Assembly (NCBI GenBank): GCA_009760855.2
Contig: WPIO01000036.1
Location: 1,941,001 to 2,005,000 of the forward strand
DNA length: 64,000 nucleotides
Direction of reading: 5' to 3'
Origin: Cristatella mucedo
Taxonomy: Eukaryota; Bryozoa; Phylactolaemata; Cristatellidae
This document shows, in pieces, positions 2,111 to 64,000 of the stretch (positions within the stretch are counted from its first letter, which is position 1; each line of letters opens with the position of its first letter). The position numbers and the translations under genes are program-made. A model generated the notes under the pieces. The model did no database searches. It saw nothing but the letters and a program-made list of their open reading frames with translations, and was not told where the DNA came from.

Positions 2111-2203
2111 TCCGTAACAATAATTTCATGACATCGGTGGCGATGCCAAGCAGAGGCATTGTTATAAGACCCGTACTTATCATGGCAGCCATAAGGATTG
2201 CCC
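2111..2203 (-). CDS. Gene 1 candidate exon 5: transmembrane segment
   Basis: Read on the minus strand, 93 bases give 31 codons in phase 1-1 with a hydrophobic run including 'AAMISTGLITMPLLGIA', then basic 'KLLLRS'. The donor is A|GTAAGT, the same sequence and phase as the donor of the transmembrane exon of gene 2. The joining codon with exon 4 is G|GG (Gly). Against it, the acceptor (ataag, 2204-2208) lacks a good pyrimidine tract. It is the only hydrophobic, phase-compatible stretch I found downstream of exon 4. If it is wrong, gene 1 may encode a secreted or broken protein. Confidence 0.35.
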
Positions 2204-2341
2204 CTTATTCCTACGCCCAGAACAACGTTACCAATGAGTAATTTCCTATTTCCTACATGCACTCGACGAGCAACCACTTAGTTCGTGTATACAAAACACT
2301 GTTATTTTAAGCTATACTGTTTCTCCACTCGCGGATCTTGC

Positions 2342-2547
2342 CTAATATCTATGAAAATCATGTGGATCTTGAACTCTTCTTGATTGATTGTAGCGTTTGC
2401 TTCCATACCCTAATGAAAAATCATGGCTCCGCCTGACATCTTCCATAGACAAAAGTGCTATCCTCGATGCCTGCATATGGCCGCTCACCAATCTTACTCC
2501 GCCGTTCACAGAAAAGGGGATTTCTTCAGCACGGAGCTTATTTATTT
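2342..2547 (-). CDS. Candidate exon (unassigned) downstream of gene 1 module C
   Basis: An open minus-strand stretch of 67 codons starts after an AG at 2548 in phase 1 and ends at TAG. It encodes a polar peptide with 'SMEDVRRSHDFSLGYGSKR'. Composition and phase would suit a juxtamembrane or alternative cytoplasmic exon of gene 1. However, it lies between exon 4 and the candidate transmembrane exon and has no phase 1 donor. The acceptor is weak. It could be chance. Confidence 0.2.
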
Positions 2548-3304
2548 CTAGTCAGCTAAGCAGTTTAGCTTTCGTAATGGGGGCGATGAGTATTGGTCTA
2601 TACGAATCAATAAATCAATCAAATTGATTGCACTGCCAAAATGCAACACTATGGTTATCCTTCGCCCGATGCATTTACCTTCTCAAGAACCATTGCGGCG
2701 ACAAGATAAACCGGGGAAATAAAGTGCAAAACCGAACGCAGCTTTATAAAGCAATTCACGTGGTCAATACATTTTTTTAGTTAACAAGAATAATATTTAC
2801 GATAAATTGCTATAGTTTCTATAATTCCAATCTGTATTTGTACTCGTAAATAGGCCAAGTTACGCTACAGAATAACAAGTTAAAACTAGATGCCGTTTTT
2901 ACATTCCTAATTAGGAAAGTTTGATTCAACTGTTTTCAAAATAATGATTAATTCATAGTGCACATCTGTAAAAGCAATGGCGAAAAAACTAAGTGAACTG
3001 TGTCAATGAAAGGTGAGACAAGCTTCCATTTTCCAAGGCGTATCCATTGCGCATCATTCTTCCTCTTTGAAAGCTTACTAACCTGTGGGACAGTCTCAAG
3101 AAATTGTTGCTTTGATGTTCTTTGAATTTTCGATGCAAATGTTAGTCCGCCAGTGTGTTATATTACTTAGAAAGAGTAGACATAGTCATGTCAGTAGCTC
3201 GATTTGTTATTGCTATTTATTAGCTTTCATCTCAGAGATAGAATGCGAAATTTACTAGTAATAGCTATGATGACTTAGGCTCTTATGTTTTAGAAAATGC
3301 TTAC

Positions 3305-3703
3305 CAATTTTAAAATATGTGACAGTATTATAAGTTTGGTTAGTAATCCTCTTTGAATAAGGTTGGTTTGGTTGCATAGCCTCTGCCTCGGGCGCTGATA
3401 TGGTGATAATGGACGATCGAGCAGTAGGCACGCTTGCTAGTTGCATTGCTCTCTCACAGTACACTTCATATTCTTGTGTCCCGACGTAAAGGTCCATGTA
3501 ATATATGAGCTTAGAGCTTTCCTGACCGTCTACCACCGCTGACACAATCGACGGTTTCCTATCCGTTATTAGGATATCTCCATTGACGTACCAAGCGATG
3601 GTGACATAGGCCAGGAACGGTGTGTTGTCCATCTTGCAGGATATCCTCATCGTCGAGTTGTTATTAAACCATTCATCTCGCATTATTACAATCAGGGGGA
3701 CAT
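3305..3703 (-). CDS. Gene 1 exon 4: Ig-like module C
   Basis: The exon is 399 bases (133 codons), phase 1-1, between acceptor tttgatttcag and donor G|GTAAGC. It encodes an immunoglobulin-like domain: strand B 'MRISCKM', strand C 'VTIAWYVNG' with the core Trp, and strand F 'YEVYCER', then 'VPTARSSIITIS'. The paralogous exons of gene 2 (34927-35310) and gene 3 (63872 onward) share the CER motif and the following VP..(A/V)(R/K)S block; gene 2 also shares TPFL and IAWYVNG. Sequons NNS, NST and NQT suggest an extracellular, glycosylated domain. The tail after the domain is longer than in gene 3. An open frame runs 5' of the acceptor into unrelated GC-rich DNA, and I do not count it as coding. Confidence 0.85.
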
Positions 3704-3744
3704 CTGAAATCAAATCGATTTCCAGCTTTAGAAAACTACTAAAA

Positions 3745-3895
3745 ACGTAACAGGCGACGGGACGGCAGCCCTGGGGGACACCACTGAGACACCCTGCTCT
3801 ACAGGGGGGAGGGGCTCCGGCGCCGCCCTCCCCATCCCTGGGGTCCCACCGGGATCGCACCGGGGTCGCACCGGTGCTCCAAACCTGGCTTCGCC
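3745..3895. other. GC-rich insertion in gene 1 intron 3
   Basis: About 150 bases of very GC-rich DNA, with repeated 'caccgg' and 'gatcgcaccgggg' elements, sit in AT-richer surroundings 40-190 bases upstream of the module C acceptor. It is unlike any other repeat here. It may be the end of a DNA transposon or a short dispersed element. I see no coding content. Confidence 0.4.
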
Positions 3896-3899
3896 TCTG

Positions 3900-4085
3900 C
3901 TACGCCAAAATATCTTTGCATTGGTAAGCGGGAGTAAGAGAATGCATGAGCTTTAAAGCGAGTAACAAAACCCTGAACTCAATACGGGACTTTATAGAGA
4001 GCAGGTGAAGTTCTTGAAAGGATGTGGTATTATGGCAATTATGATTTTGACGAAAGACTAGCCTAGCTTCAGAGATTTGCACCAC
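3900..4085 (-). mobile_element. LINE fragment, RT C-terminal region (third, diverged family)
   Basis: The minus frame reads 'EARLVFRQ', then 'LLSIKSRIEFRVLLLALK', then 'TPAYQCKDIL'. This is the region just after the RT fingers/thumb that is typical of CR1/L2 proteins (xARLV.R ... LHWLPIKxRIxFKVLLL ... APxYLxDLL). It is closer to the general CR1 pattern than to families A or B in this window. It is truncated at both ends. Confidence 0.6.
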
Positions 4086-5160: not shown

Positions 5161-5174
5161 GATTTAATGTATGT

Positions 5175-6901: not shown

Positions 6902-7252
6902 CTCTAATTTGATAAGCAGCTTCTTCTGAACGTATCAAATAATCGTGGCTGTAATACTGCTGGTAGACTCCAACGGAACAAGAAAATCTAGCAAAACTAA
7001 CAGAACTGTTGAGCTTGGTAACGGCGATAACGGTTTGTCGAGCGCATAAAACTACACTGCTCTCTATTTCTTCAGACGCCATGCCATCGTGAAATTCGTG
7101 GCCAGTGACCGATTCGGCGTTGTAATGCAGCTTCGCTTCCGTTATGCGAAGTCCAGTCAAAGAATTGCACTCGCACGTGACCACGAAGGCCTCACCCGCT
7201 GGCATCTGCGATAGAGAAGTCACGGCAGGCGTAATGGCCACAGTTGGACGAG
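6902..7252 (-). CDS. Gene 1 exon 3: Ig-like module B
   Basis: The exon is 351 bases (117 codons), phase 1-1, acceptor tttggtttcag, donor G|GTAAGT. It encodes a four-cysteine Ig-like module: 'GEAFVVTCECNS' with a CxC motif, 'VVLCARQTVIAVTKLNSS', 'FSCSVGVYQQ', and a closing 'AAYQIRG'. Every one of these blocks has a counterpart in gene 2 exon 3 (GEAYLASCDC, SVCPSGSVVIVTRLGSS, LQCSAGIYQE, YQIQG). It lacks the core Trp expected of a classical Ig fold, so the assignment to Ig rests on the cysteine spacing, phase and neighbourhood. It is predicted to be extracellular and N-glycosylated (NSS). Confidence 0.83.
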
Positions 7253-8769: not shown

Positions 8770-11761
8770 AGCTTGTAATAGAATGTAGTGTATCTCCGTC
8801 TGTAACTTCACAAAGCCATAAACACTATATGGGTATTACGCTTGACAGGTTTTTTTTATAACAAACTGACAGCCGAAGCGGCTTTCAGTACGCCTTCGGT
8901 AGCCAACAGACTTCGTCTGACGCAGCAAAGAGAAAGTGGAAAGCATAGCAGAGTCAGGAGGGCAGTTCAGGTAGTGAGTAGCATGAAAGTAGCAGCTCAG
9001 CACTGCTGAGAAGGATGAGCCATAGTCAGCAGTAGGAGAGTAGTTGTCGTTGCGAAAGAATTGTGGAAGCGAGTTATACATTCTAGGACCTGCAGAGTTA
9101 AAGCTTCCGTCGCCAACGGTCTTTAAGCGGAGGAATGAAACAGCTAATTTATTGTCCACACAGGACCTGAAGGCGCGAAGAGGCTGAAACTGGTGCAGCA
9201 GTTCAGCTAGGTACGAAGGAGCCAAGCCGTGGCGGGCCTTGGGGGTCAGCCTAAGAACTTTGCTCTGTATCCATTGCTCAACCGGCATCCATCCTAGTTC
9301 TTTTAGCAAAGAAGACACGTGCTCAAACCTCTGGGACTTGAAAACTAGCCTTGCAACCATATTCATAGTCAGCTGCAGTGGCCAAGTTGCTTTCTTTGGT
9401 CGCCCAGCCAAAAGTCAATTACAATAATCAAGCCGAGACAGAACTAAGGAGCTAGTCAAATTGTTTGCAAGCCACTGTGGAAGACAGCTCCTAATCATGG
9501 ATGGGGATCAGACGTGATGGCTAGCTGTAGAAGCAGTCTTCTGAATGATGCTTCTGAAATTTAGGCAGCTGTCGAAAACGACGCCTAACTTTCGAGCACG
9601 TGGTGGTGAGTGCACAACAGCATCAACTATTAGAAGAGCAAAGCCTGTTAATCCAGCAATACGCTAATGGTGTCCTTAGAGCAGCCGTTTGGTTTTATCG
9701 TCATTTATTTTTAAGAAGTTTTCCGACATACAGGATCGAATGTCGGCAAGGCAAGCATTCGGTTCTCAGTTGCTGCAGCATATTCCGGCGGTTTGAATGA
9801 CAAATACAGCTGAGTATCGTCAGCGTAGAAGTGATATCCTATTACATGGTTCTTAATCACTTTTCCCAGAGCTGTAGTACAAATGGAGAACAGCAAGAAA
9901 ACGAGTGCTGACCCTTGAGGGACTCAACAGGTGACTGTTCTCGTGCGTTAGAAATGACCCACACACAATACGGATTGAAAACGATCAGACAGGTGCGATT
10001 TAAACCACGCCAGTTCCTCTTCTGGCAGACCGATCGTTGTTCTCAATCGTTCAAGCAGAACATCGTGATCAATGGTGTCGAAGGCAGCAGACAGACCTAG
10101 CGGAGCTAGGGCAGTGACATTCCCGTCATCATTGCCACGTAGAATGTCATTGTTAACACGGAGGAGAGCAGTTTCGGTAGAGTGCTGCATCTTGAACCCT
10201 GATTGAAATGTTTCTGACATTCCGTTATTTTCAATATGTTCAACTAGCTGCTTAGTAACAATTTTTTCAAGAATCTTTGATAAGAACGGAAGGAGAGAAA
10301 CTGGACGATAGTTTGCTAGGACTTCTGTGTCTAATCCAGGCTTTTTAAGAATAGGTCTAACGATTGCCGATTTGAAGGACTTGGGACGACCCTTTCTCCC
10401 AAAGAAGCTTTAAAAATCTCAGTTAGGGCAGGGCTAAGTTGGTCTGCAAGTGAAGACCACGGACAAGGTGGTATAGGGTCTTCAGGAAACGAGCTCTTTT
10501 TACTTGACCTTATTAAGATAGCCACATCGCATGCAGAAACCTCGGAAAACTTTTTAAGGAAGGTCACGGGTTGTGATTCAGCAATTGCTTTAGTCGGATG
10601 GGGCTTTATGGAGGAACGAACGTGCACAATTGTTTCAGTAAAGAAAGCTGAAAACCTCTCGGCTGAGCCCTTAATATCTGGGGAGTCAGACCTCTCAGCA
10701 TTGGCCAGTAAATGGTTCACTGTCTTATAAATCTGTTTAGGGTCCGACTAGCAGGAATTTAGCTTTCGAGTGAAAAACGAAGCGCTGACTTTTTAGCTTC
10801 CGGGTGTAAACTCGAAGGAAGTCTTTGAAATTGACGGGATGTGGATCAGACCTCGATTTCTCGAAACGACGTTCAAGTCGGCGCTAAAACCGGCGCATTT
10901 TTAGCAGTTTTTTTGTAAATTGAAAGGAATCTACGCGACTCTGTACACGGACGGAACGAACGGGAGCACTTGTTCTTGGTTGTCAAGAGCACTCCTGCGT
11001 GTCACGTTTACTGCATCAGTATCAGTGAGGGTACCGAGGCTGCCGATCGAGTCTGAATGCAGATCAAGAAGAACTGCACCACAAACAGATTTGCGTTTGA
11101 TGAGCACCTGATTGCAACCGATTCCAACGATGGCCCGTGCGAAAAACGATTCGAGAACAACAATTGCAACCCAGCCAACCACCTTGTCAGAACGTGTTGG
11201 CTGATAAAATGAGAACCCGGATGGAGTGGTCTCAGATATACAGCTACTGAAACAAGGCGTCATCCAAGTTTCGATAAGCAGAAATGCATCTAGTTTCTCC
11301 TGGACCACCTGATCGCGGATAAGTAACCCGTGTTTTTAGCGAGCGGGCATTTTAGTAGGCGGAATATAAGAGGTTGTCCAACAACTGGGCGACGGCAATG
11401 AAGTGGCTTGCATTCACGTCGACGTGTATCCGGCCCGGCAGACGCGGGCCCTTCGAATTTGAATTGGACCTTAGTAACGGCCGCCGGTCGCCGTTCCACT
11501 GCACGCTGGGCCACGGCATGTGAGTACTACCGAAACGAGTACTATTCAGCGCTTAAAACCTACGGGTCGTAGGTTTGAGAGCCGAGCTGTTGATAGGGCG
11601 AACGCACAATACAGGAAGGTTCTCTCTGACCTGCCGAAGAAAGCCTGCTAGTAGGTAGCGACTAACGGCGACATCGCACCGTGTGCTAAGCAGGTCCTGT
11701 CTTGTGTAGCAAATCCGAGGACAGCTCATAAATAGTCACAGCGAAGATAATAGCGGAATAC
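8770..11761 (-). mobile_element. LINE family A, near full length (5' end to 3' end), disrupted
   Basis: Read on the minus strand: the 5' end at 11761 ('tattccgctattatcttcgc') coincides with that of the copy ending at 52898. Then comes the endonuclease region with 'KLDAFLLIETWMTP' (about 11310-11270), a linker, and RT with '[19 protein letters not shown]' and '[17 protein letters not shown]' (10220-10040), '[14 protein letters not shown]' (about 9840-9795), and the C-terminal 'LVFKSQRFEHVSSLLKELGW' region (9345-9290). The 3' end 'acagacggagat' is at 8790. Many frameshifts; not active. It lies in gene 1 intron 2. No separate ORF1 is visible. Confidence 0.85.
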
Positions 11762-13279: not shown

Positions 13280-14380
13280 CGATTTAGGCACTGAATAAAT
13301 ACATTTTTATTGTTTTAACCTGGTTTCTCTCAAGACCAGCGCCTATGATGCAGATATATCCAGTAAACTTCCTAATAGAGCCTGGCTGGAGCGAATAATT
13401 TTTCTTTCATCAGTCGAACAAGCATGGATGTATGGATTGGAGCGTAGCCTGAAGGGTTACTTCTGACACGCTGGATGAGCAAATGCCAGTTTAGATCACA
13501 GGCTGGCAGTGTTCAATGAAGTGCGATGCCATATGAAGTACGGATGCTATATGAAGTATGAATGTTTTTTTCCAATCCATTCGTGATTCTGTTGCATCCA
13601 GGTGCATTTCAAGTCGGACTCAGAGGACATGTCATGAAATCGGCTCTTTATCAAGTCGCTGAAGCAAGTCAAATCTGTAGTTTAGGCTGAGCAGACAAAT
13701 GGTCGACCAGCTATTTGACAACAGTGCTTCGACATGCTTTTGCTAAAGGCTCGTTCAGCAGAGGTATATAGTGACATTCAGCATTCACTCCTAGACCGAA
13801 CACACAGTGATGGAAATCTAGGTGTAATTAGATCTCCATGATTTCTTTCTAGGTCTGTCTGCGGAAGTGTTACACGGGATTCTGGGTTCGATATGCCTGG
13901 ATTTGTATTGTATATTATATTTCATATTTAATTAAATTGTATTATATTATTATGCTGTATTTACATATTATGCTATTTTATTCTTTATTTTATGTATTAT
14001 ATTTTAAAGCATATTACACTATATTATATTATACTATATTACATATATTAAACTACATTATATTGCATAGGATTTTATTATTGGAAGCTTACATCTCCGG
14101 GCTTGATAGGAAGTATTCACAAGCTGCCTAAAATGCTTTGCAGATGTCAAACCTCCAGAACCGCCAGGCTTAAGCCACGAGACATTAAACTCATTCAAAT
14201 TCTTAGGCAATCTCGTAACGTATAAACATGAGACCTGAGGCCTCATGCATTGGCAATGAAACCCAAAAAATACTCTCGCTGGGATCGGTGAATGACTGCG
14301 TAACCTTTGCAGTACAGTGGAAGTGGCTGTAAAAAGCTGCTCCGCAACCTCTGGGCTACCACTGTAGCTCTGTAACCGAT
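13280..14380. other. Gene 1 intron 2, unassigned; AT-rich tract 13905-14070
   Basis: The AT-rich tract consists of imperfect 'tattatattata'-like units. I see no gene. Confidence 0.5.
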
Positions 14381-14389
14381 TGAGCTACC

Positions 14390-14878
14390 GAGATTGCTCC
14401 CCCGAGACTGCTCCTCCGAGACTGCTCCCCCGACACTGTTCCTCCGAGACTGCTCCTCCGAGACTTCTCCCCCGGTACTGCTCCTCCGAGACTGCTCCTC
14501 CGAGCCTGCTCCTCCAAAACGGCTCCCCGACACTGCTCCTCCAAAACTGCTCCTCCAAGACTGCTCCTCCGAGACTGCTCCCCCGAGACTGCTCCCCCGA
14601 GACCGCTCATCCGAGACTGCTCCTCCGAGACTGCTCCTCCGAGACTGCTCCTCCGAGACTGCTCCTCCGAGACTGCTCCCCCAAACTGCTCCTCCGAGAC
14701 TGCTCCCCCGAGACTGCTCCTCCGACACTTTTCCTCCGAGACCGCTCCGCCGAGACTGCTCACCTAAGACTGCTCCCCGAGACTGCTCCCCTGAGACTGC
14801 TTCCCGAGACTGCTACCCCTAGACTGCTCCCCAGAGACTGCTCCCCGAGACTGCTCCTCCAAGACTGCTCCTCCGAAG
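14390..14878. repeat. Minisatellite, 14-bp unit (tgctcctccgagac), about 34 copies
   Basis: The unit 'tgctcctccgagac' repeats with variants (ccccga, ccccaa, tccaaa). Because 14 is not a multiple of three and the unit has no stop in these registers, long open frames appear on both strands, giving PPRLLPRDCSSETA-like or SEEQSRRSSLGGAV-like peptides. These are artefacts of the repeat. The array abuts a LINE B fragment at 14880. Confidence 0.9.
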
Positions 14879-14879
14879 G

Positions 14880-15960
14880 CCTCAGTTGCCACATCGCATA
14901 ACTTTTCGCCGACCTGCACTGGCTACCAGTCAAGCAACGGATCGACTTCAAGGCTTTGTCGCTCACGTTTAGGGCCTTTTTATTCTTTAACTCTAGTCTA
15001 TCTATCAGATCTATTTTCCCACCTGGCCAAGCATTGTACAAGCATTGCCGAGCATTGTACCACTCGCTTTTCGGAATCCAACTGTTTACCTATACCTCGT
15101 ACAAACCTCATATTCTTCGGAGACCGGCATTTAGTTGGTATGCTCCCAAAGCCTGGAACTCCCTCCCGACTTGCGAAACGACATCCCCTGACTTGACCAC
15201 ATTTAAAATGAACTTGAAAACGCACCTATTTATGACAGCATTTAGTCGGTGCCTTGATTCTTTCTCCGTGTGCTTATGTGCTGACACTGTGCATGCTGCC
15301 ACTAGCCACACTTGCGTGCTGACACTGTGCATGCTGCCACTAGCCACACTTGCATGCTGACACTGTGCATGCTGCCAACTAGCCACACTTGCATGCTGAC
15401 ACTGTTCATGCTGCCACTAGCCACACTTGCATGCTGACCCTGTGCATGCTGCCACTAGCCACACTTGCATGCTGACACTGTGCATGCTGCCACTAGCCAC
15501 ACTTGCATGCTGACACTGTGCATGCTGCCAACTAGCCACACTTGCATGCTGACACTGTTCATGCTGCCACTAGCCACACTTGCATGCTGACCCTGTGCAT
15601 GCTGCCACTAGCCACACTTGCATGCTGACCCTGTGCATGCTGCCACTAGCCACACTTGCATGCTGACACTGTGCATGCTGCCACTAGCCACACTTGCATG
15701 CTGACACTGTGCATGCTGCCACTAGCCACACTTGCATGCTGACACTGTGCATGCTGCCACTAGCCACACTTGCGTGCTGACACTGTGCATGCTGCCACTA
15801 GCCATGTTATTCATGTCGTTTATCAAGCATGATACCACTCTCTATTTGATCGTGTTTCCTTTTCAGCAAATTTTAAGCATCTATAAAGAGATTGAGTGCT
15901 TTGGGGGCACTTTGTCGACTTAATTTTTATTGTAAATATTATTATTATTATTAATGTAAG
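14880..15960 (+). mobile_element. LINE family B, 3' part with expanded 3' UTR minisatellite
   Basis: It starts within the RT C-terminal region ('FADLHWLPVKQRIDFKALSL' equivalent, about 14908-14970) and continues through 'SWYAPKAWNSLPTC' (15130-15170) into the 3' UTR. The UTR is enlarged by a 38-bp tandem array (15278-15805). It ends with the family hairpin remnant and (ATT)n at 15935-15955. Confidence 0.8.
15278..15805. repeat. Minisatellite, 38-bp unit, about 14 copies, derived from LINE B 3' UTR
   Basis: The unit begins 'tgctgacactgtgcatgctg' and continues 'ccactagccacacttgca'. Ordinary LINE B copies carry one to two related units (…gacactgtgcatgctgccac…). Variant units (ccaact, gttcat, gaccct) occur in the same order twice, giving a four-unit higher-order repeat. 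Confidence 0.93.
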
Positions 15961-17538: not shown

Positions 17539-17979
17539 CGCAGAAGGTGACGTTGCCTAGCTCAGAATTTGAATCGTGAAATTCTGTATCATAGGACACG
17601 TCAGTGTAGCTAACGCCGCACCTCAGATTGTTAACCAGAACTAAATACATAGGGTTCCTGAGGTTCCATGGAAATGTGAAAGTCACGCTCACGTCGGTTG
17701 GGTTGTGTGCATAGTCGTCCTTGATCTTGCATCTAGTACTCTCAAAGTTGAACGGCTCTCTGTTGTAGCGTGAACCATGAGGAAGATCACCAAGGCCAAG
17801 ACCAGATGGCATGCTGCACCAAACGTAAACTAGCTTGTTGCGAGACCTCTCAGTGCTGGAATGCATTTGCATTGATAGTGACCTCAGCCTTTTGCTTGGC
17901 AATGAGAGCACCTGGCACGTGATGCTGTACATAGCCGACATGTTCACACATGACTGGCGAGTGGTTGTGATAGTCAAAC
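17539..17979 (-). CDS. Gene 1 exon 2: six-cysteine module A
   Basis: The exon is 441 bases (147 codons), phase 1-1, acceptor ccgtctctaag, donor G|GTAGGC. It encodes the first extracellular module after the signal peptide. Six cysteines are conserved with gene 2: 'RQSCVNMSAMYSITC', 'YVWCSMPSGL', 'FESTRC', 'NNLRCGVSYTDV' and 'NVTFCG'. A signature 'VSVTFTFPWNLR' also matches gene 2 'LNLTFTFPWENR'. I do not recognise the family; the cysteine pairing and beta-rich look would allow an Ig-like or other sandwich fold, but this is inference. Two usable N-glycosylation sites (NMS, NVT). The donor is weaker than its neighbours' but keeps phase and position. Confidence 0.83.
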
Positions 17980-19930: not shown

Positions 19931-19997
19931 CTTCAGCCAGTAATTGCTCGATAATGGCAAGGACGAATAATGCAAAAGTAGACGCCACTGAAAGCAT
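19931..19997 (-). CDS. Gene 1 exon 1: signal peptide
   Basis: ATG at 19997 opens 'MLSVASTFALFVLAIIEQ' plus 'LLAE', a typical secretory signal peptide. The exon ends G|GTAAGC in phase 1, and the split codon with exon 2 gives Gly. Length (67 coding bases) and donor phase match exon 1 of gene 2 (73 bases). The first ATG was chosen because it places the hydrophobic core directly after the start. The 5' UTR and promoter were not defined. Confidence 0.75.
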
Positions 19998-24755: not shown

Positions 24756-25875
24756 CCAGTGTGAATCCTAGCCTGCACTTCTATGTGGATGACTCTCAGT
24801 TTTAACTTTGCTTTGATCCCTCCCAGCCTTCAAGCACCTCGGATTCTCTCAACTCACTTGCTGCATGTATTCATGACATCACACATGGAGGGCAGAAAAT
24901 TTTCTAAAGCTTAGCGATGATAAAACTAATTACTAGCTATGGGAAAACCCAGTGTGATTCATAAATTGGAAAGGCTGACGCTCAAAATTGGATCTGCCAG
25001 CATATCTCCAGTTGAATCAGCTCGAAATCTAGGTATCATGTTCCGAAGTGACCTCTTGTTAGACGACCACGTCAGCTCCACCGTCAAATCCGCCTATTTT
25101 CATCTACATTACGTTGCTAAAATTCGGGCTTGTTTAGATAACGATACCACGTCCAAATTAGTCCATGCATTCGTGACATCCCGTCTCGACTTCTGCAACT
25201 CACTACTTACTGGCCTACCAGCATGTGCAATCAGGCGATTGCAGCTGGTGAAAAACTCTGCAGCTAGGCTTGTCTGTCGTGAGCTTCGCAATTACCACAT
25301 TACACCACTTCTCGCCGACCTGCACTGGCTACCAGTCAAGCAACGGATTGACTTCAAGGTTTTGTCGCTCACTTTTAGGTCCCTTTATTCTTTGGTTCCA
25401 GCCTATCTCTCAAATATACTCCCCCACTAGGCCAAGCATCGTACCACCCGCTTTTCGGAATCCACCAGTCTACCAATACCTTGTACAAACCTCAAATCCT
25501 TTTGGAGACCGTGCATTTAGTTCGTTTGCTCCCAAAGCCTGGAACTCTCTCCTGGCCTGCGTCAGAACATCCCCTCACCTGACCACATTGTAAAAGAACA
25601 TAAAAACACACCATTTTAGGAGAGCATTTAGTGGGTTCCTGTGATTCGTCCTCGATGTGCTTATGCGTACTGACACTGTGCATGCTGCCACTGACCACAT
25701 TTGCATGCTGACCCTGTGCATGTCACCCCTAACTATGTTGTTCATTTTGTTCATTTATCAAGCATGATATTACTCACCAATCAATTGCATTTCCCTTTGC
25801 AGCAAATGTAAAGCGCCCATAGAGAGATTAAGTTCTCTGAGGGTGCTTTATCAAGTGCAATAATAATATTATTAT
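24756..25875 (+). mobile_element. LINE family B, RT C-terminal and 3' end (split copy, right part)
   Basis: An open frame at 24939-25430 encodes 'GKPSVIHKLERLTLKIGSAS', 'VTSRLDFCNSLLTGLP', 'AARLVCRELRN' and 'LHWLPVKQRIDFKVLSL'. It is followed in another frame by 'FSSFAPKAWNSLLACVRT', the 3' UTR with 'gacactgtgcatgctgccac', the hairpin and (ATT)n at 25858-25885. CR1/L2-like; the frame breaks at 25430. Confidence 0.85.
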
Positions 25876-31560: not shown

Positions 31561-31576
31561 GCAACTTATGACTTAC

Positions 31577-31774
31577 TTCCTTCAAAGTTTTCTTTACGCG
31601 AAAATATCCTTCCGAACATGCCGTTAAAGCAAAATATATTTTTCTTTTTAAAAACAGTCACCGTAAGAACTCCGATGACTAATAGTACGGCACTGAGAGC
31701 TATTGAAATTATCGGACTCGGTCCCAACGTGGTTCTAGTCATTTGGCTTGTAGTTTGTGCAGTCGGTATCGAAT
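31577..31774 (-). CDS. Gene 2 exon 5: stalk, transmembrane helix, start of cytoplasmic tail
   Basis: The exon is 198 bases, phase 1-1, acceptor gcgtttctgcttcag, donor A|GTAAGT. It encodes a Ser/Thr stalk ('SIPTAQTTSQMTRTTLG'), a hydrophobic helix 'PIISIALSAVLLVIGVLTV' and a basic stop-transfer 'FKKKN', then 'RIFSRKENFEG'. The split codon from exon 4 is G|AT (Asp). If the donor is not used, translation stops at TAA 31566-31568 after three more residues, giving a tail of about 30 residues. The donor sequence and phase match the candidate exon at 2111-2203 in gene 1, which favours further tail exons. None was identified with confidence between here and gene 1. Confidence 0.75.
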
Positions 31775-34926: not shown

Positions 34927-35310
34927 CTGAATTCACTCCAGAGCCTGTTGCCTTAGCATAGACTTCTGTGATTAATTCCTTGGCTTTATCTAAAGGCGAC
35001 GAAATCACAATAGAAGGTGATCTCGCAGGAGGAACATCTCCGAAAGCCAGAGTTCGCTCGCACTCAACATTTTTGCTGATTGAGTCTACTGGAATATCGG
35101 ACTCGTACACTGACCATAATCCATTTTGGTTCGGCATTGACTGAGCAGTTTCGATTGGTTGTGCGTTTCTCTCGGAAATCTTCACCCCATTAACGTACCA
35201 GGCAATCTTTATCCTGGTAAGGAATGGAGTGGGCTGGATTTTACAGAGCATTCTGAATGACCTTGTTGCGTTTGACCATGGACCTTGAACAATGCCGACA
35301 GTGGGACTAC
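34927..35310 (-). CDS. Gene 2 exon 4: Ig-like module C
   Basis: The exon is 384 bases (128 codons), phase 1-1, acceptor tctatcttttag, donor G|GTGAGG. An Ig-like domain: 'FRMLCKIQPTPFLTRIKIA' (strand B Cys), 'IAWYVNGVK' (core Trp), 'KNVECERTLAFGDVPPARS' (strand F Cys), then 'IVISSP' and a membrane-proximal stretch. It aligns along its length with gene 1 exon 4 and, where visible, with gene 3. Sequon NAT near the start. It sits between module B and the transmembrane exon, so it is the membrane-proximal ectodomain. Confidence 0.87.
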
Positions 35311-38755: not shown

Positions 38756-39109
38756 CTTGAATTTGGTAAGTTCGCTCTTTAGACGCCAAAAAGTATGGTG
38801 CGTCGGAGTCCTCCTGATAAATGCCAGCAGAGCACTGTAAGCTGACAGAGCTCATTGAGCTACCCAAGCGCGTGACAATCACTACCGAGCCGCTAGGGCA
38901 AACACTAACGGCTGACCTCCGGTTGTCGACGTCGCTAGGCTTTGAGTTACCAGGATCTTTCACCAGAACAATGGGTCCGCTATTATTCCACGTCGTGGTT
39001 AGCACCTTGTAGCCTGCGGCTGGCCGGCAGTCGCAGCTAGCTAGGTAGGCCTCACCTTCCGCTAGGGTTGACGACGTAGGTGACGGATCGGTCACAACCA
39101 CTGGCTCTC
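38756..39109 (-). CDS. Gene 2 exon 3: Ig-like module B
   Basis: The exon is 354 bases (118 codons), phase 1-1, acceptor tgttcatttag, donor G|GTAATT. Four cysteines in the module B pattern: 'GEAYLASCDCRPA' (CxC), 'AVSVCPSGSVVIVTRLGSS', 'SLQCSAGIYQED', closing 'ERTYQIQG'. Gene 1 exon 3 shares each block and the module length (117 codons). The sequon NNS is present. As in gene 1, there is no obvious core Trp in the usual place, although 'TTTWNNSG' offers one after the CxC. A frame continues upstream past the acceptor but loses similarity there. Confidence 0.85.
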
Positions 39110-39344: not shown

Positions 39345-39611
39345 CTTATCACTACTCACACATTGCTTGCCGTTGCTCACACGTTGCTTGCCTTTGCTCA
39401 CACATTGCTTGCCGCCGCTCACACATTGCTTGCCGTTGCTCACACATTGCTTGCCGCTGCTCACACATTGCTTGCCGTTGCTCATACGTTGCTTGCCGTT
39501 GCTCACACATTGCTTGCCGCTGCTCACACTTTGCTTGTCGCTGCTCACACGTTGCTTGCCGCTGCTCACACTTTGCTTGCCGCTGCTCACACGTTGCTTT
39601 TTATTGCTCAG
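39345..39611. repeat. Minisatellite, 21-bp unit, about 12 copies
   Basis: The unit is 'cacattgcttgccgctgctc' plus a. Because the unit is 21 bases, both strands stay open as heptapeptide repeats (HTLLAVA or TRCLPLL on plus, VSSGKQC on minus). I regard these as repeat artefacts. It lies about 230 bases 5' of module B in gene 2 intron 2. Confidence 0.92.
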
Positions 39612-40052
39612 GCGTTGTCTCGGCTACCTTGACACATGCACATCGCGGAACGTGAAAATCTTATCAGTCGAGTTTCATTAGCCGAACTCTCGCTCTGAAT
39701 TGAAAGAATAGTCACTTTTGAATTCATAGATCACTCGAGCGATCTGCTGCATACTAAATCAATGCTATACCCGACAGCAGCCGATTACCCAATCAGGTAG
39801 CATTTTTACTTATCCATCTCTCACACAGACCTGGTTAGGGTTAATGCAGGAGTTCTAGAAATTAAATCGTGACAGTCAGTTTCACTTACATCAGAGAAAC
39901 TAAGACTGTAGCCACGATTACTATCAATGCCTCAGAGGATTGCCGTCACCCCGACTGCGACACGATGTAATGCGTTTTCTTTCTGTTATTGCACGACAAA
40001 TGTTTTTGTGCTAACGTTTTGTGTGCGTTTTTGTGAGCTTGTGTATGTGTCC

Positions 40053-42869: not shown

Positions 42870-43820
42870 CACAGTTAATAAACCCAGTGTGATTCCGAAA
42901 TTGGAAAGGCTGACGCTCAAAATTGGCTCTGCTAGCATATCTCCAGTTGAATCAGCTCGAAATCTAGGTGTCATATTCCAAAGCGACCTCTCGTTAGACG
43001 ACCATATCGGCTCCACAGTCAAATCTGCCTATTTTCAGCTTCATAACATTGCTAAAATTCGGGCTTGTTTAGATAAGGATACCACGTCCAAGTTGGTCCA
43101 TGCATTCGTGACATCCCGTCTCGACTTCAGCAACTCACTGCTCGCACTGGCCTACCGGCATGTGCGATCAGGCGATTGCAGCTGGTGCAAAACTCAGCAG
43201 CTAGGCTTCTCAGTCGTGAGCGTCGATGTTGCCACATTACACCACTTCTCGCCGACCTGCACTGGCTACCAGTCAAGCAACGGATTGGCTTCAAGGTTTT
43301 GTCGCTCATTTTTAGGTCACTTCATTCTTTGGCTCCAGCCTATCTCTCCGATCTACTCCCCCATCATGCCAAGCATCGTACCACCCGCATTTCGGAATCC
43401 AACAGCCTACAAATACCCCGTACAAACCTCAAATTCTTTGGAGACCGTGCATATAGTTCGTATGCTCCCAAAGCCTGGAACTCCCTCCCGACCTGCGTCA
43501 GAACATCCCCTGACCTGACCACATTTAAAAAGAATTTAAAAAAACACCTATTTAGGACAGCATTTAGTGCGTCCCTGTAATTCGTCCTTGATGTGCTTAT
43601 GCGTGCTGACACTGTGCATGCTGCCACTAACCACATTTGCATGCTGACCCTGTGCATGTCACCCCTAACCATGCTATTCATTTTGTTTGTTTATCAAGCA
43701 TGATATTACTCACCGTTCAATTGCATTTTCCTTTGCAGCAAATGTAAAGCGCCTAGAGAGAGATTGAGTTCTCTGAGGGCACTTTATCAAGTGCATTATT
43801 ATTATCATTATTATTATTAA
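42870..43820 (+). mobile_element. LINE family B, RT C-terminal and 3' end
   Basis: A 209-codon frame (42889-43518) with 'LERLTLKIGSASISPVESAR', 'SDLSLDDHIGSTVKSAYFQL' and 'VTSRLDFSNSLL', then one frameshift. The neighbouring frame carries 'LHWLPVKQRIGFKVLSL' and 'YAPKAWNSLPTCVRTS'. 3' UTR, hairpin and (ATT)n at 43795-43820. One of the better preserved B fragments, 5'-truncated. Confidence 0.88.
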
Positions 43821-44993: not shown

Positions 44994-45443
44994 CGCAAAA
45001 AGTGACGTGTCCAGGCTCGCGGTCCGAGTCCACCGCGTTCTCGCCGTGCAGTACGTCCGTGTAGACCAGACCGCATCGCAGACTGTTAATGAGAGGCAAC
45101 AACTTGGCAGTCCGATTTTCCCACGGAAACGTGAACGTGAGATTAAGTGGACTGGGTGGCTTCATGTGCCTCAGATCTGGAAGGACGCACTTTGTCCCGT
45201 CGAAGCGCAACGATTGATTCGGACTAGTAGGTCTATCGGCTACGCGCAGGCCGTACGGTGGCGTACACCAGGCGTACGCTCTAACGCCGGCGTAATGATG
45301 GCTCCTGCTGTATATGCTCCTTTGCAGTTGCAACGTGTAAGATAGTATGGCGGGCATCGAAAAGGCCGAGCACGTGATGTTGTACGTGCCCGTGACGTTC
45401 ACGCAGTGCTGGCGTATTGTTTTGACTCGCGTCGGTGCCACCG
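44994..45443 (-). CDS. Gene 2 exon 2: six-cysteine module A
   Basis: The exon is 450 bases (150 codons), phase 1-1, acceptor ttgcattacag, donor G|GTGAGT. It follows the signal peptide directly; the split codon G|CG gives Ala. Conserved with gene 1: 'RQHCVNVTGTYNITC', 'AYAWCTPPYGLRVADRP', 'FDGTKC', 'LNLTFTFPWENR', 'INSLRCGLVYTDV' and 'HVTFCG'. Six cysteines are shared. Five sequons (NVT, NIT, NQS, NLT, NRT) point to a heavily glycosylated membrane-distal domain. I do not recognise the module. It is GC-richer than the gene 1 copy. Confidence 0.87.
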
Positions 45444-49502: not shown

Positions 49503-52500
49503 GATGGATCTCCGTCTGTAACTCCACAAAGTCATAAAGACCATGTAGGTGTTACGCCACAGAGTTTTGTATAGCTCACTCCCAGCCTAGGCGGCTTTAG
49601 GTAGCCTTCGGTAGCCAACAGACTTCGTCTCACGCAACACAGAGAAAGTGGAAAGCATAGCAGAGTCAGGAGAGCAGTTGAGGTAGTGAGTAGCATGAAA
49701 GTAGCAGCTCAGGACCACTGAACAGGATGAGCCATAGTCGGCAGTAGGAGAGTAGTTGTCGTTGCATAAGAATTGTGGAAGCGAGTTCCACAGTCTAAGA
49801 CCTGCAGAGCTAAAGCTAATGTCGCCAACGGTCTTTAAGCGGAGGAATGGAACAGCTAATTTATTGTCCACACAGGACCTGAGGGCGCGAACAGGCTGAA
49901 ACTGATGCAACAGTTCAGCTAGGTACGATGGAGCCAAGCCGTGGATGGCCTTGTGGGTCAGCGTAAGAACCTTGTTCTGAATCCGTTGGTCAACCAGCAT
50001 CCATTCTAGCTCTTTTAGCAAAGGAGACACGTGCTCAAACTTCTGAGACTTGAAGACTAGCCTTTCAGCCATATTCATAGTCAGCTGCAGTGGCCTAATC
50101 GCATTTTTTGGTAGCCCAGCCAATAGGGAATTGCAATAATCAAGCCGAGAGAGAACTGAGGAGCTAGTTAAATTGTTTGCAAGCCACTGTGGAAGACAGC
50201 TCCTAATCTTGGATAGGGATCGGACGAAATGGCTAGTTGCAGAAGCAGTCTTCTGAATGAAGCTTTTAAAATTGAGGCAGCTGTCGAAAACGACACCTAA
50301 ATTCCGAGCACGTGGTGACGGTCGCACAATAGCATCACTTATTAGAAGAGCAAAGCCCTCTAATCTAGTTATACGCTTAGGGTGTCCTATGAGCAGTAGT
50401 TCGGTGTTATCGTCATTTAATTTCAGGGAGTTTTCCGACATCCAGCATCGAATATCGTAAGCATTCAATTTTTCAGTTGCTGCAGCATATTCCGACGGTT
50501 TGAATGACAAATACTGCTGAGTATCGTCAGCATAAAAGTGATATCCTATTCCATGTGCTTAATCACTTTTCCTAGAGGTTGTGTATAAATAGAGAACAGC
50601 AAGGGGCCAAGTACAGACCCTTGAAGAATTCCACAGGTATCCTTTCTCGTGTTTGAGACCTGACCCCCACACGACACCGATTGGACACGATCGGACAAGT
50701 CAATTTCAGCCAGGCCAGTGCTTCGTCTGCCTGATCGATTGTTGTTCTCAATCGTCCAAGCAGAACATCGTGATCAATGATGCCAAAGACAGCAGACAGA
50801 TCTAGCAGAGCGAGGGCAGTGTCATTCTCGTCGTAGTTGCCACGTAGAATGTCATTGCTAGCACAAAGGAGAGCAGTGTCAGTGGAGTGCTGCCTCTTGA
50901 ACCCTGATTGAAATGTTTCTGACATGTCATTCTTTTCAATTTGTTTAACTAGCTGCTTAGCAACAATTTTTTCAAGAATACTTGACAAGAAAGGAAGAAG
51001 GGAAACCGGGCGATAGTTTGCAAGGATCTCTGTATCTAACCCAGGCTTTTTAAGTATGGATGTAACGATTGCCGATTTGAAGGACTTAGGGACGACCCCT
51101 TTTCCCAGAGGCTTTAAAAATTTCGGTTATGGCAGGGCTAAGTTGGTCTGCTAGTGAAGACCACAGAGATGAGGGTTTAGGGTCTTTAGGAGACGAGCTC
51201 TTTTTGCTTGACCTTATTAAGGTAGCCACGTATCATGCAGAAACCTCGGAGAACCTTGTAAGGAAGGTCGCAGGTTGTGGACCCCCATTTGCTTTAGTCG
51301 GAGGGTGCTAAATAGAGCCACGAATGTGTACAATTTTTTCAGTAAAGAAGGCTGCTAACTTTTCGGCCGAGTCCTTAATATCTGGGGAGTCAGACCTCTC
51401 AGTATTGGCCAGTAAAGGGTTTACTGTCTTACAAATCTGTTTAAGGTCCGACTGGCAGGAATTCAGCATTTGGATGAAAAAATAAGCCCTGGCCTTTTTA
51501 AGCTTTCGGGTGTAAACTCGAAGGAAGTCTTTGAAATTTACCAGATTTGCATCAGACCCCGATTTCTTGAAACGACGTTCCAGCCTGTGCTTAACCCGGC
51601 GCATCTTGAGGAGTTTTTCTGCAAACTGAAAGGAATCTCCACGACTTTGAACACGGATAGAATGAACGGGAGCATGCTTGTCAAGAGCACTCCTGAGTGT
51701 CATGTTCATTGCATCAGTGAGGGTATCGAGGCTGCCGGTCGAGTCTAAATGCACATCAAGAACACCTGCTTCACAAACAGATTTCAAAAAATTGTTTACG
51801 TCAATGCTTTGTAAGTTACGTCGTTTGACAAATTCGACGTTACCGTGTACGTACAAGGGAGCAGGAACAGTAAAGGAGACCGAACAATGATCCGAGACGG
51901 TCGGTGGGCACACCATAAGGTCAGTGAGGAGGACATCCTTTGTGATCACAAGATCCAGAGTATGGCCACCGACGTGGGTGGTATGATATACGTGTTGGAC
52001 CAAACCAAAATTCTCCAGACAGTCGAGAAATGAGCGGACCTTGCTGTTGCTAGGGTTGTCAACGGGACTATTGAAGTCTCATGCAATCAGTAACGGCCTG
52101 TCACACGCAAATATTTTAGTAAGGAACTCTGAAAACTCCTCTATAAACAAGTTTAGACAGTCAGAAGTAGGCCGGTATATCACAACAGTGAGAGGCATTG
52201 TCTTCGATGAAGACCTAACTGCAACCGATTCAAGCGATGGCCCATGCGAGAAACTGCATCTGAGAAACTGTACATCTTTGATTCGCGAACAACAATTGCA
52301 ACCCGCCAACAACCTTGTCAGAACCCATGGACTTTTTGAATGAGAACCCGGGTGGGGTTGTCTGAGAAATACAGCTACTGGAACAGGGCGTTATCCAGGT
52401 TTCGGTAAGCAGAAATACATCTAGCTTCTCCTGGTTCACCTGATCGCGGATAAGTAACCCCTTGGTTTTTAGCGAGCAGACATTTAGTAGACGGAATTTA

Positions 52501-52898
52501 AGAGGCTGTCCAACAACTGGGTGACGGCGATGAAGTGGCTTGTATTCACGTCGGCGTGTGTCCGGCCCGGCGGACGCGGGCCCTTTGAATTTGAATAGGA
52601 CCTTAGTAACGGCTGCCGGTCGACGTCTCACAACATGCTGGGCCACGGTGGGTGGGCTACTACCGCAACAAGTACTATTCAGCGCTTTAAACTTAAGAGT
52701 CGTAGGTTTGATAGCCAAGCTGATGATAGGGCGAACGCAGGATGCAGGAAGGTTCTCATTGACCCCCTGAAGAAGGCCAGCCGGTAGGTATCAACTGATG
52801 GCGACATCGCACCTTATGCTAAGCAAGTCCTGATTTGTGTAGCATGTGTATCCGAGGACTGCTCATAAATAGTCACAGCGAAGATAGCAGCGGAATAC
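49503..52898 (-). mobile_element. LINE family A, near full length EN-RT element, disrupted
   Basis: Read on the minus strand from 52898. A 5' leader, then a frame with 'RLLNVCSLKTKGLLIRDQVN' and the endonuclease motif 'LDVFLLTETWITP' (52718-52410). Next come 'GHTLDLVITKDVLLTDL' and 'PTVSDHCSVSF' (51960-51860; the SDH catalytic motif of AP-endonuclease-type LINE nucleases), a linker, and RT 'FQSGFKRQHSTDTALL' and 'LLDLSAVFGIIDHDVLLGRL'. A 307-codon frame (49587-50510) covers the thumb and C terminus with 'LNDDNTELLLIGHPKRITRL' and 'LVFKSQKFEHVSPLLKELEW'. 3' end 'acagacggagat' at 49506. Several frameshifts. Confidence 0.9.
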
Positions 52899-58198: not shown

Positions 58199-59253
58199 TC
58201 ACCGCCACGCCTTCGAGCCACCGCGGCGGCCGCTTCGGGTGGAGCCCCGCGAGCCCGACGCTGGCGTTGTAGCGACTCTGCTTTGAGCGGCCGAGCTCGG
58301 CGAGCCATCTGAGCGCCGAGAAGAGAGCGGGTTCGAACCGGCAGCCGACATCTTGGATCTGTCGCTGCGGCCTGCCATCGGCGAGTGGGTCGCTCGTGGC
58401 GACTCTGCTGCCTTTGACCTGACGTGGTCGCTGCGACCGGCCGCCGGCGACCGGATTGCCGCTGAGGATGAGATTGATGACACATGCGGCCGGCCGCTGC
58501 TGCCGCGGCTGTGGGCATCGCGATTCGCCATCAGCGATCTGGCCGCCAGCGGCGGTCTGGCTGCCTTCTGCATTGCGTTCCTGTCGTCGTCAGAGGCCGT
58601 CATCGGCAAGAGCGTCGCCATGAGCTTGCTTGGCGCCACCGCCTTGCCGACGTCGTGGCGAGTTGGCACCGATTGCTGGCGCGAGGCCGATGTCATCTGT
58701 CGACCCGAGCGAGCGGCCTGAACCCAGCCGTCGACGACCGCCTTTGGCGACAGAGCCACCGTCGGTGAGTGAGATCGCGGGGATGGCCAGCGCGACGACC
58801 GGCCACCGCCGCCGTCAGCGCCACCGCCGCGGCCGACGTATCGAAACGCCGTCCTCGCTTCTTCCGGCCGCCGGCTCTCTCGCGACGTCACTAGACCACC
58901 TGGCGCAGCGACGCCACCTAGCGCAGCGACGCCAGGTGGCGCGCTTCTCGACGCCTCGCTCTGCTGAGCCATGGAAGAGAGCGAGACGCTGTAGGTTGTC
59001 GTTGCCAAGGTCTCGTCGAAGGTTTCGGCGATTTCGAGCGGCTCCAGCACTTCAGCCGACGTCACCGACGAGGCCGCCGCCACCGCCGCAGGCAGCGCTG
59101 GCAGTGCTTGACGTCTCCGTCTCCTCTTCCTGATGAGCACGACTCCAACCCAAGCAAAGGCGCAGAGCGCACCGAGGCCTACCACCGATCCGATGGTCGC
59201 TGCGAACAGCTTTTTTGGCGTCACCATTGTCTTCAGGATTCTTATTTCGATTT
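58199..59253 (-). CDS. Gene 3 last exon: transmembrane helix and long basic cytoplasmic tail
   Basis: The acceptor tgtttttcttttcctcag precedes a phase 1 frame of 350 residues to a stop at 58199. The split codon with the module C exon at 63872 is G|AA (Glu). It encodes a short stalk ('IEIRILKTMVTPKK'), a hydrophobic helix within 'LFAATIGSVVGLGALCAFAW' and 'VGVVLI' (residues about 16-38), and a strong stop-transfer 'RKRRRRRQ'. About 300 residues rich in Ser, Ala, Arg and Pro follow, with imperfect internal repeats ('AAGRSDHVRSKAAESP', 'MAGRSDRSKMSAAG'). No ITIM/ITAM fits; the two Tyr contexts (TTTYSVS, FRYVGRG) lack the +3 hydrophobic residue. Tail likely disordered. Base composition differs sharply from the ectodomain exons. 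An internal ATG at 59227 could be mistaken for a start. Confidence 0.75.
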
Positions 59254-60600: not shown

Positions 60601-60612
60601 ACATCAGAGGAC

Positions 60613-61470: not shown

Positions 61471-61479
61471 TCGATCAAC

Positions 61480-62390: not shown

Positions 62391-62394
62391 TGTA

Positions 62395-62690
62395 GCGTAT
62401 CTCCGTCTGTAACTCCACAAACCCACTAGGACTGTGTGGAGGCTACGGGGGAGAGTTTTCTTGAAGGAGAGTTTTCTTGAGCGCACTCAAAGTCTAATAG
62501 GCTTTCAGTACGCATTCGGTAGAAAACAGTCTTCGTCTCACGCAATAAAGAGAAAATGAGAAGCATAGCAGGGTCGGGAGAGCAGTTGAGGTAGTGAGTA
62601 GCATGGAAGAAATAGCAGCTCAGGACCACTGAAAAGGATGAGCCATAGTCGGCAGCAGGAGAGTAGTTGTCGTTCCTGACCAGAGGCACC
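62395..62690 (-). mobile_element. LINE family A, 3' fragment
   Basis: 3' end 'acagacggagat' at 62399-62410 (minus), flanked by 'acgctacattgcatt', with the C-terminal frame 'LNCSPDPAMLLIFSLLRETK' (about 62600-62540) and 'NDNYSPAADYGSSFSVVLSC'. Truncated near 62690. Confidence 0.82.
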
Positions 62691-62699
62691 GACGGACGT

Positions 62700-63355
62700 T
62701 TCACCACTCCTAGTCTGCATTGAGATTGCATTTGATTGCATTTTCTAACACGTTATCTGCGATGACCTTTCAGAGGGTGGATAATAAACACAGCCCGCTA
62801 GTGAGGATTTCGACTGGACGAGACGATCGACGCCGGGGACCGTTCGTCTGTCACGTGGCTTTGTCGCGCTTCGCTGCGCCATCTTCGCATGCCTTGAGGA
62901 TGGCGAAGCGTTTGCACTGCGTATTGTTTGCTAAGTTTCTGCGTCCAATCGCGATCTTACAGCGATGGGGCGGATTGGATGAAGCGGCCAATTCGAGTTC
63001 TCCCTCAAAGACGCCCAGCTGTCGCTCAGCGACGCGTCGGCACGTCCGCATGCGCTCGACGTCCTCCTATGCGAGAGGTTCCCACGTCTTTCTCGCCGCC
63101 AATTATCCGCTCCCGCGTGAACAGCGAGTGAGCTCTTTCGAGTGAATCTCGATGACCTCCGACCTACACTGCCGCCCACAGCTGCCTTCACTGCCAGCTA
63201 AGCCGCAACGATGACGTCAGCTACCACGTGTCGTCGGGACCTGTCGGAACAGCCAATCAGCTGCCACTCTCTGTCGCCTAAGGGTCATTGCCGAAGAACG
63301 CTCGTGCTCCCCCACTTGAGGTCTTCAGCAGCGAAAGCAGGTGCTCCAGTCGCAT
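62700..63355. other. Gene 3 intron, moderately GC-rich, no supported gene
   Basis: Open frames on both strands at 62720-63190 overlap and show no splice or family support. Confidence 0.4.
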
Positions 63356-63359
63356 GGTG

Positions 63360-63530
63360 CACTACGCACTGCTTTGGCCCAGCGGTCAAGGTGCTCGCCT
63401 CGACCAAGGTCTGATCGAGGTCATGGGCTCGAGCCCCGAGGCTAAGTGAAGCCCGTAAAGAGAGATTAACCTCTTTGGTTCTTAAGTTCTTTCTAAGTTC
63501 TCTTAGGGAGCTATAAAAATGAACCACGTA
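63360..63530 (+). mobile_element. tRNA-derived SINE, family 2
   Basis: Plus orientation: A-box-like 'tggcccagcggtcaaggtgc', B-box-like 'gggctcgagccccgagg', then the tail 'gtaaagagagattaacctct' and 'ttagggagctataaaaatga'. It shows the tRNA-like head in full. Confidence 0.8.
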
Positions 63531-63871
63531 TATTTTTGCATGTACTCTTCGCTTCGCTAACTCTGATCTTTAGAGCGCGACTCCGATCTGACCTTCGAAT
63601 AAACCGCAGCTCCAGTCCTTTATGCGAATTAACAACCGCTCCACTCGTGCTAGCGTAGAAACAGCAGCTCTGGTCTTCCGTGGTAATAAACAGCGACTCC
63701 AGCATTGAACGATAATGAAAAACACTACTCTATTCTTAACAATGAATAAAAATAGCTAAACTTTTTCTTTTAAGTCGATGAGCATTATGCCTCGAACAGC
63801 TGCAACGACCAAGTAGGTTCAACTGCGAGTAAATAAGCTTTAACGGCACACCCCAAAGAATGCACTCTTAC

Positions 63872-64000
63872 CCGGTTTGACGAGGATGCTGATTACGTTG
63901 GACTTTACCGGCGGGATATTTTCGACGGGCACGTGACGTTCGCACTGGAATCTGTTCGCACCCACTTCGAGACTTGCGTCGAACTCTACCAAAGGTAGCA
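63872..64000 (-). CDS. Gene 3, end of Ig-like module C exon (partial at window edge)
   Basis: The minus frame from the window edge reads 'PLVEFDASLEVGANRFQCER', then 'HVPVENIPPVKSNVISILVK' and ends CCG G|GTAAGA in phase 1. The 'CER' motif after strand F and 'VP/PPVKSNVISILV' match the end of module C in gene 1 (YCER ... VPTARSSIITIS) and gene 2 (ECER ... VPPARSPSIVIS). Phase and position make it the penultimate exon of a third paralogue whose last exon is 58199-59253. The rest of the gene lies outside the window. Confidence 0.75.

What the first reader, a model, noticed from the sequence alone, without database searches (positions are those of the whole stretch)
2111..64000. Tandem array of three paralogous single-pass receptors built only of phase 1-1 exons
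Three minus-strand genes in a row share the order signal peptide, six-Cys module A, CxC module B, Ig-like module C, transmembrane exon. All intron junctions I could place are phase 1, which allows modules to be shuffled or skipped without frame loss. All split codons at predicted joins are sense codons. The layout recalls known immune or allorecognition Ig-superfamily arrays (for example cnidarian Alr-type complexes), but modules A and B are not ones I recognise. Function is inference.
Basis: partly seen in the sequence, partly recalled or inferred. Interest (0 to 1): 0.88.

Follow-up and report, generated by a model that had tools for sequence, protein, structure and literature searches.

The report
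Tandem array of Ig-like receptor genes
This stretch of an invertebrate genome holds part of a row of related genes for cell-surface receptors built from immunoglobulin-like blocks, members of a larger gene family in the same genome; it looks like a new family of a familiar kind, and whether it recognises microbes, other individuals or neighbouring cells is not known.

Summary
Modules A (six invariant Cys), B and C are real single-exon, minus-strand modules; 16 of 16 copies in 264 kb can be bounded by phase-1 splice sites, and each left-out copy is found again by a profile of the others at E 3.8e-10 or better. I read six genes over about 173 kb, not three: five A-B-C-TM and one A-TM. Gene 3 runs off the right window edge (A and B near 73.0k and 68.3k); the best TM exon of gene 1 lies left of the window. 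Elsewhere in the genome: a same-strand cluster on C288 (24 C and 16 B matches at E<=0.001 in about 650 kb), three A copies on C71, and scattered ones. C is Ig-like (C1-set-like signature), B perhaps Ig-like, A matches nothing in Pfam or PDB. Phase 1-1 exons are normal for extracellular animal modules. A recognition or adhesion receptor is likely; immune or allorecognition use is plausible but unsupported: the few close B and C copies tested show dN/dS below 1, five of six tails tested lack ITIMs, and outer module A is not the most variable.

The parts
63872..64000 (-). gene 3, module C exon (3' part; exon continues to 64183 outside the window), phase 1-1
58199..59253 (-). gene 3, transmembrane plus long Ser/Arg/Ala-rich cytoplasmic exon with stop; phase-1 acceptor
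44994..45443 (-). gene 2, module A exon (six Cys), phase 1-1
38756..39109 (-). gene 2, module B exon, phase 1-1
34927..35310 (-). gene 2, module C exon (Ig-like), phase 1-1
31577..31774 (-). gene 2, transmembrane exon; phase-1 acceptor, possible phase-1 donor gtaagt after 31577 (else stop ending at 31566)
19931..19997 (-). gene 1, candidate signal-peptide exon (MLSVASTFALFVLAIIEQLLAE), phase-1 donor
17539..17979 (-). gene 1, module A exon, phase 1-1
6902..7252 (-). gene 1, module B exon, phase 1-1
3305..3703 (-). gene 1, module C exon, phase 1-1; its best TM exon lies outside the window at about -8936

Best explanation
The window carries part of a six-gene head-to-tail array coding for single-pass type I membrane receptors: signal peptide, module A (about 145 aa, six invariant Cys), B (about 120 aa), C (about 105 aa, Ig-like), transmembrane helix, divergent tail. 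Each extracellular module is one class 1-1 exon. The genes arose by old tandem duplication and have stayed under protein-level constraint; a related cluster on C288 is built of alternating B and C modules, includes recent duplicates and broken copies, and looks like birth and death. Shown: open module exons, splice-site phases, order, paralogy, copy distribution. Inferred: transcription and joint splicing, membrane topology, the Ig fold of B (and perhaps A), and function. Most likely function: extracellular recognition or adhesion through the outer modules, without an ITIM of its own in the tails tested.
For: Profiles recover A 6, B 5, C 5 copies in 264 kb, all on one strand, each whole within one open frame; leave-one-out E 3.8e-10 or better for 16 of 16 and phase-1 borders for 16 of 16; one TM candidate in each of six gene intervals; non-synonymous below synonymous differences in 34 of 35 module pairs of the array; C profile matches Ig domains, best E 1.2e-7, and one C copy (C376) passes the Pfam C1-set cut-off, 22.6 against 21 bits; A-B-C order again on C254, B-C on C111 and C376 (the C111 and C376 B matches are weak, E 0.02 and 0.013); N-glycosylation sequons 31 against 14 for the reversed motif in 16 modules.
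Against: No transcript data. The TM scan also gives 7 hits on the other strand and 4 minus-strand hits that fit no gene, so single TM assignments, gene -1's above all, could be wrong; its thresholds were set after a first look. A and B have no significant match to any Ig domain, and A, B and C profiles do not match each other significantly. One of 35 pairs (B of genes 1 and 0) has pN 0.593 above pS 0.569.
Confidence: 0.66

Rival explanations
1. Immune or allorecognition complex: the family (C299 array, C288 cluster) encodes polymorphic self/non-self receptors, comparable in role to Hydractinia Alr.
For: Multigene, tandem, same-strand clusters with broken copies on C288 (7 of 27 C places with stops, places as); Ig-like module, single pass; low identity between array copies (17-41%).
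Against: dN/dS 0.32-0.42 for 4 close C pairs and 0.48 for 1 B pair on C288 (5 of 27 C and 2 of 23 B places used, few changes, A not testable): no module-wide diversifying selection, though single sites could differ. Module A is the most alike in 6 of 10 gene pairs and never the least alike alone. No ITIM in 5 of 5 tails tested of six. Polymorphism untested.
Confidence: 0.35
2. Neural or tissue adhesion family, in the manner of arthropod Beat/Side or Dpr/DIP (recalled, not tested): combinatorial ligand pairs, old and constrained, with one lineage-specific expansion.
For: Old duplicates under constraint; tails tested without ITIM; the C profile lists Beaten path Vb, but only over 15 residues at E 0.31.
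Against: No orthologue-level match in the libraries searched; the C288 expansion with broken copies is unusual for a wiring code (inference).
Confidence: 0.35
3. The exons are relics or belong to unrelated genes, and the apparent gene order is accidental.
For: Introns are large and rich in repeats; no transcripts; genes 2 and -1 lack a clear signal-peptide exon (4 hits against 4 on the other strand, and 4 against 26).
Against: 16 modules each whole in one open frame, shared splice columns, the same order in five genes and in C254.
Confidence: 0.05

Closest known systems
Hydractinia Alr allorecognition complex (IgSF)
   Same: Family of single-pass Ig-superfamily receptors in clusters, low identity between members, many pseudogene-like models (PMC11067881, passages)
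   Different: Alr domains are described as V-set and I-set (PMC11999971, passages); no C, B or A member here matched Pfam V-set or I-set at E<=1; C is C1-set-like; A has six Cys and no match; no polymorphism data; mitochondrial code points to a protostome
Gastropod FREPs
   Same: Invertebrate multigene family with Ig-type domains (PMC11999971, passages)
   Different: FREPs are described there with a C-terminal fibrinogen domain; modules A-C match none in Pfam, and these genes have TM exon candidates
Oyster CgIgIT2
   Same: Mollusc Ig-domain receptor tied to immunity (PMC11999971, passages)
   Different: Described there with five extracellular Ig domains; that it carries an ITIM is recalled; none found in the five tails tested here
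Vertebrate C1-set Ig domains
   Same: Module C profile aligns best with heavy-chain constant domains (IgE Fc E 1.2e-7)
   Different: 2 of 11 C members match Pfam C1-set at E<=1, one over the cut-off; only 60 of 3115 PDB matches were listed, one of them a light chain over residues 22-88, where a V domain would lie; in the genome two other loci score higher

Membership tests
Immunoglobulin superfamily (module C) | Cys...Trp...Cys core and profile match to Ig domains | tested here: met
   C23, W38, C83 invariant in 11 of 11; PDB profile E 1.2e-7
Immunoglobulin superfamily (module B) | profile match to Ig domains | tested here: inconclusive
   five-member profile: FceRI alpha E 0.29; ten-member profile, one member of it doubtful (C44): no Ig match among 8 listed at E<=5; two Cys invariant, one Trp nearly so
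Immunoglobulin superfamily (module A) | profile match to Ig domains | tested here: not met
   no significant Pfam or PDB match (two antibody heavy chains at E 0.56 and 1); fold not predicted, so an Ig fold is not excluded
C1-set | Pfam PF07654 over its cut-off | tested here: inconclusive
   1 of 11 C members over 21 bits, 1 more below; the genome search listed 3 places, two unrelated ones over the cut-off and the C254 copy at 18.7; it did not list the C376 copy that passes, so its list is incomplete
Class 1-1 modular extracellular proteins | domain equals exon, phase 1 on both sides | tested here: met
   16 of 16 exons (no transcript check)
Alr-type allorecognition receptors | clustered Ig-superfamily single-pass genes | tested here: met
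   (layout only; A and B not shown to be Ig)
Alr-type allorecognition receptors | highly polymorphic ectodomain controlling fusion or rejection | not testable with these tools
   one assembly only
Alr-type allorecognition receptors | V-set/I-set-like domains | tested here: inconclusive
   no V-set or I-set Pfam match at E<=1; Ig_3 at 0.028 for one C copy; folds not predicted
ITIM/ITAM immune receptors | tyrosine motif in the tail | tested here: not met
   no ITIM in 5 of 5 tails tested, at most two Tyr per tail, none as YxxL/I; sixth tail (0b) not tested by script; further 3' exons not excluded, for gene 2 above all

The most novel reading that the evidence does not exclude
A lineage-restricted recognition system of a protostome: an old A-B-C receptor array plus a fast-turning cluster of about 650 kb made of alternating B-C receptors, with a membrane-near domain of C1-set-like type, serving as a self/non-self or allorecognition complex independent of Alr and of vertebrate MHC.
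Probability: 0.17. Interest if true: 0.82.

Novelty: new member of a known kind. Interest (0 to 1): 0.46.

Why it matters
Large Ig-like receptor clusters are candidates for self/non-self recognition in animals without antibodies. Here exon borders, a copy map and a probable B/C-less gene are given, so expression, polymorphism and binding can be tested directly. If the function proves to be adhesion, it is still an unnamed Ig-like family with an unmatched six-cysteine module.

Tried and rejected
Pfam scans of A and B gave only chance-level hits. Profile-profile comparison of A, B and C with each other: not significant. Trees of A, B and C copies are mostly unresolved (the one well-supported fork joins C of genes 1 and 2), so shuffling of modules between genes could not be tested. 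The C1-set idea as a special link to vertebrate immunity was weakened by the genome search. The organism: COX1 fits invertebrate mitochondrial code 5 (AGR as Ser, AAA as Lys, judged by eye against recalled canonical residues), hence probably a protostome, perhaps a lophotrochozoan; searches by assembly size and mitochondrial terms and passages of one bryozoan genome paper (size does not fit) did not name it. Paper searches: for a similar family; for Alr 63; for C1-set in invertebrates 78; for exon phase 93. Listings were seen, and passages only of PMC11999971, PMC8001218, PMC11067881 and PMC13326412; no listed title or abstract start describes these modules. The Alr family paper (Huene et al. 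2022) is not held.
Full report
What is there. The window is C299:1941001-2005000 of an unnamed 572-Mb, 688-contig genome. I fetched 100 kb on each side and searched the open frames of the 264 kb with profiles of the modules. Module A occurs 6 times, B 5 times, C 5 times, all on the minus strand, each whole within one open frame. In window coordinates, read 5' to 3' (right to left; negative numbers lie left of the window): gene 3 A 73002-72565, B 68300-67944, C 64183-63872, TM 59253-58199; gene 2 A 45443-44994, B 39109-38756, C 35310-34927, TM 31774-31577; gene 1 A 17979-17539, B 7252-6902, C 3703-3305, TM about -8936; gene 0b A -20177 to -20617, TM about -29366; gene 0 A -38379 to -38807, B -41014 to -41385, C -54037 to -54366, TM -57872 to -58179; gene -1 A -80017 to -80460, B -81664 to -82017, C -84711 to -85037, TM about -91026. 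The window itself holds gene 2 (without a clear signal-peptide exon), gene 1 without its TM exon, and only the 3' end of gene 3.

Is it more than chance? Single-sequence searches link the copies, from E 1.5e-30 (A of genes 2 and 1) to 0.025 (B of genes 1 and 0). Leaving each copy out and searching with the rest finds it again at E 4.8e-36 to 3.8e-10 in 16 of 16 cases, with no frame outside the known copies listed at E<=10. Splice borders: one search looked for phase-1 sites only and found a pair for 16 of 16 exons; five borders in four exons have a second phase-1 site in range, and one search shows AG and GT in other phases nearby. What carries weight is position: the A donor directly after the last Cys (6 of 6), the B acceptor and donor (5 of 5 each) and the C acceptor (5 of 5) lie in the same alignment column, while the A acceptor and the C donor vary.

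TM and signal-peptide exons. TM exons were picked by hydropathy, basic residues and a phase-1 acceptor, with thresholds set after a first look: 10 minus-strand and 7 plus-strand hits in 264 kb. Six of the 10 fall one per gene between its last module and the next gene; four fit no gene. Single assignments are therefore uncertain, although the set is convincing. Signal-peptide exons with a phase-1 donor were found for gene 3 (82365-82302) and gene 1 (19997-19931) by a stricter scan that gave no opposite-strand hit in those two intervals. Looser scans offer candidates for genes 0b (-13786 to -13861; 3 hits against 5 on the other strand) and 0 (-34178 to -34262; 8 against 4), and nothing clear for gene 2 (4 against 4) and gene -1 (4 against 26).

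An A-TM gene. Gene 0b has module A and a TM exon with a phase-1 acceptor, and no B or C in the 8.7 kb between, even with enlarged profiles and filters off. It is what loss of class 1-1 exons without frame loss would give; divergence of B and C beyond recognition is not excluded.

Sequence constraint. Between the array's genes identity is 17-41%; synonymous differences are mostly near saturation, and non-synonymous ones are lower in 34 of 35 module pairs, the exception being B of genes 1 and 0. Module A, the outermost, is the most alike of the three in 6 of the 10 gene pairs that share all modules and is never the least alike alone; for genes 1/2, 2/3 and 1/3 identities are A 38, 41, 40, B 31, 32, 24 and C 32, 27, 17.

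Elsewhere in the genome. With the C copy of C254 as query there are 44 matches at E<=1, 33 of them at E<=0.001; with B of gene -1, 31 matches, 21 at E<=0.001. On C288 these include 24 C places (one split match counted once) and 16 B places at E<=0.001, all on the plus strand, between about 1.51 and 2.15 Mb; with weaker matches 27 C, 23 B and one A. B and C alternate in long runs, and the order C-B-B-C-B-C-B-C appears three times (some members at E 0.002-0.01). Seven of the 27 C places contain stops. C254 repeats A-B-C; C111 and C376 have B-C with weak B matches; C71 has three A copies about 90 kb apart. Close C288 copies give dN/dS 0.32-0.42 for four C pairs and 0.48 for one B pair; these use 5 of 27 C and 2 of 23 B places and few changes, and no A pair was close enough. 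The tool states that its counts of large families are lower bounds; matches at E near 1 may be false.

What the modules are. C: Cys, Trp and Cys invariant in 11 of 11. The 11-member profile puts heavy-chain constant domains first (IgE Fc E 1.2e-7; 60 of 3115 matches listed, one a light chain over residues 22-88, where a V domain would lie), and one member, from C376, passes the Pfam C1-set cut-off. A genome search with C1-set listed three places: C5 and C332, unrelated and over the cut-off, and the C254 copy below it; it did not list the C376 copy, so it is incomplete. I conclude that C is an Ig domain with a C1-like signature, not evidence of kinship to vertebrate constant domains. B: the five-member profile gave the Fc epsilon receptor at E 0.29, which was not listed with the ten-member profile (one member, from C44, is doubtful). 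A: nothing significant.

How it most likely works. A type I membrane receptor with three extracellular modules, a helix and a tail that differs from gene to gene; in the five tails checked (of six) there is no ITIM and no YxxL/I, so signalling, if any, would go through partners, other motifs or further exons. Cell-surface recognition or adhesion is the likely role; between immunity or allorecognition and tissue or neural adhesion the data do not decide.

Novelty. The kind (clustered Ig-like receptor families in invertebrates) is known: Alr, FREPs and others. This family was not met in the listings of the paper searches, and A has no match in Pfam or PDB sequence; I file it as a new member of a known kind.

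Noticed in passing
G000:C288:1497303-2154558: Large same-strand cluster of alternating B and C modules (51 places incl. weak ones), 7 of 27 C places with stops, some copies 93% identical.
   Followed up: partly
G000:C71:396179-579940: Three module-A copies, same strand, about 90 kb apart: another array of the family.
   Followed up: no
C299, window coordinates -20177 to about -29640 (left of the window): Probable gene with module A and a TM exon but no B or C found.
   Followed up: partly
G000:C299:1861690-1861824: Partial second copy of the end of module A upstream of gene -1, with 4 TAA in the matched stretch.
   Followed up: no
window 9400-11300, 24900-25600, 29200-29700, 42900-43600, 49600-52800: Broken LINE-type reverse-transcriptase frames within introns and between genes (type judged by eye); described only.
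   Followed up: no
window 14360-14883, 15279-15851, 39294-39660: Tandem repeats of 14, 38 and 21 nt; the 14- and 21-nt ones stay open in several frames.
   Followed up: no
G000:C166:4375626, C83:3121 and 2826, C549:2641741, C299:634220: COX1-like pieces outside the mitochondrial contig C688, some with TAA or TAG: possibly nuclear copies of mitochondrial DNA.
   Followed up: no
G000:C5:1037974 and C332:12005026: Two loci match the Pfam C1-set model over its cut-off (27.8 and 26.1 bits) and are not among the places found by the A, B or C searches.
   Followed up: no
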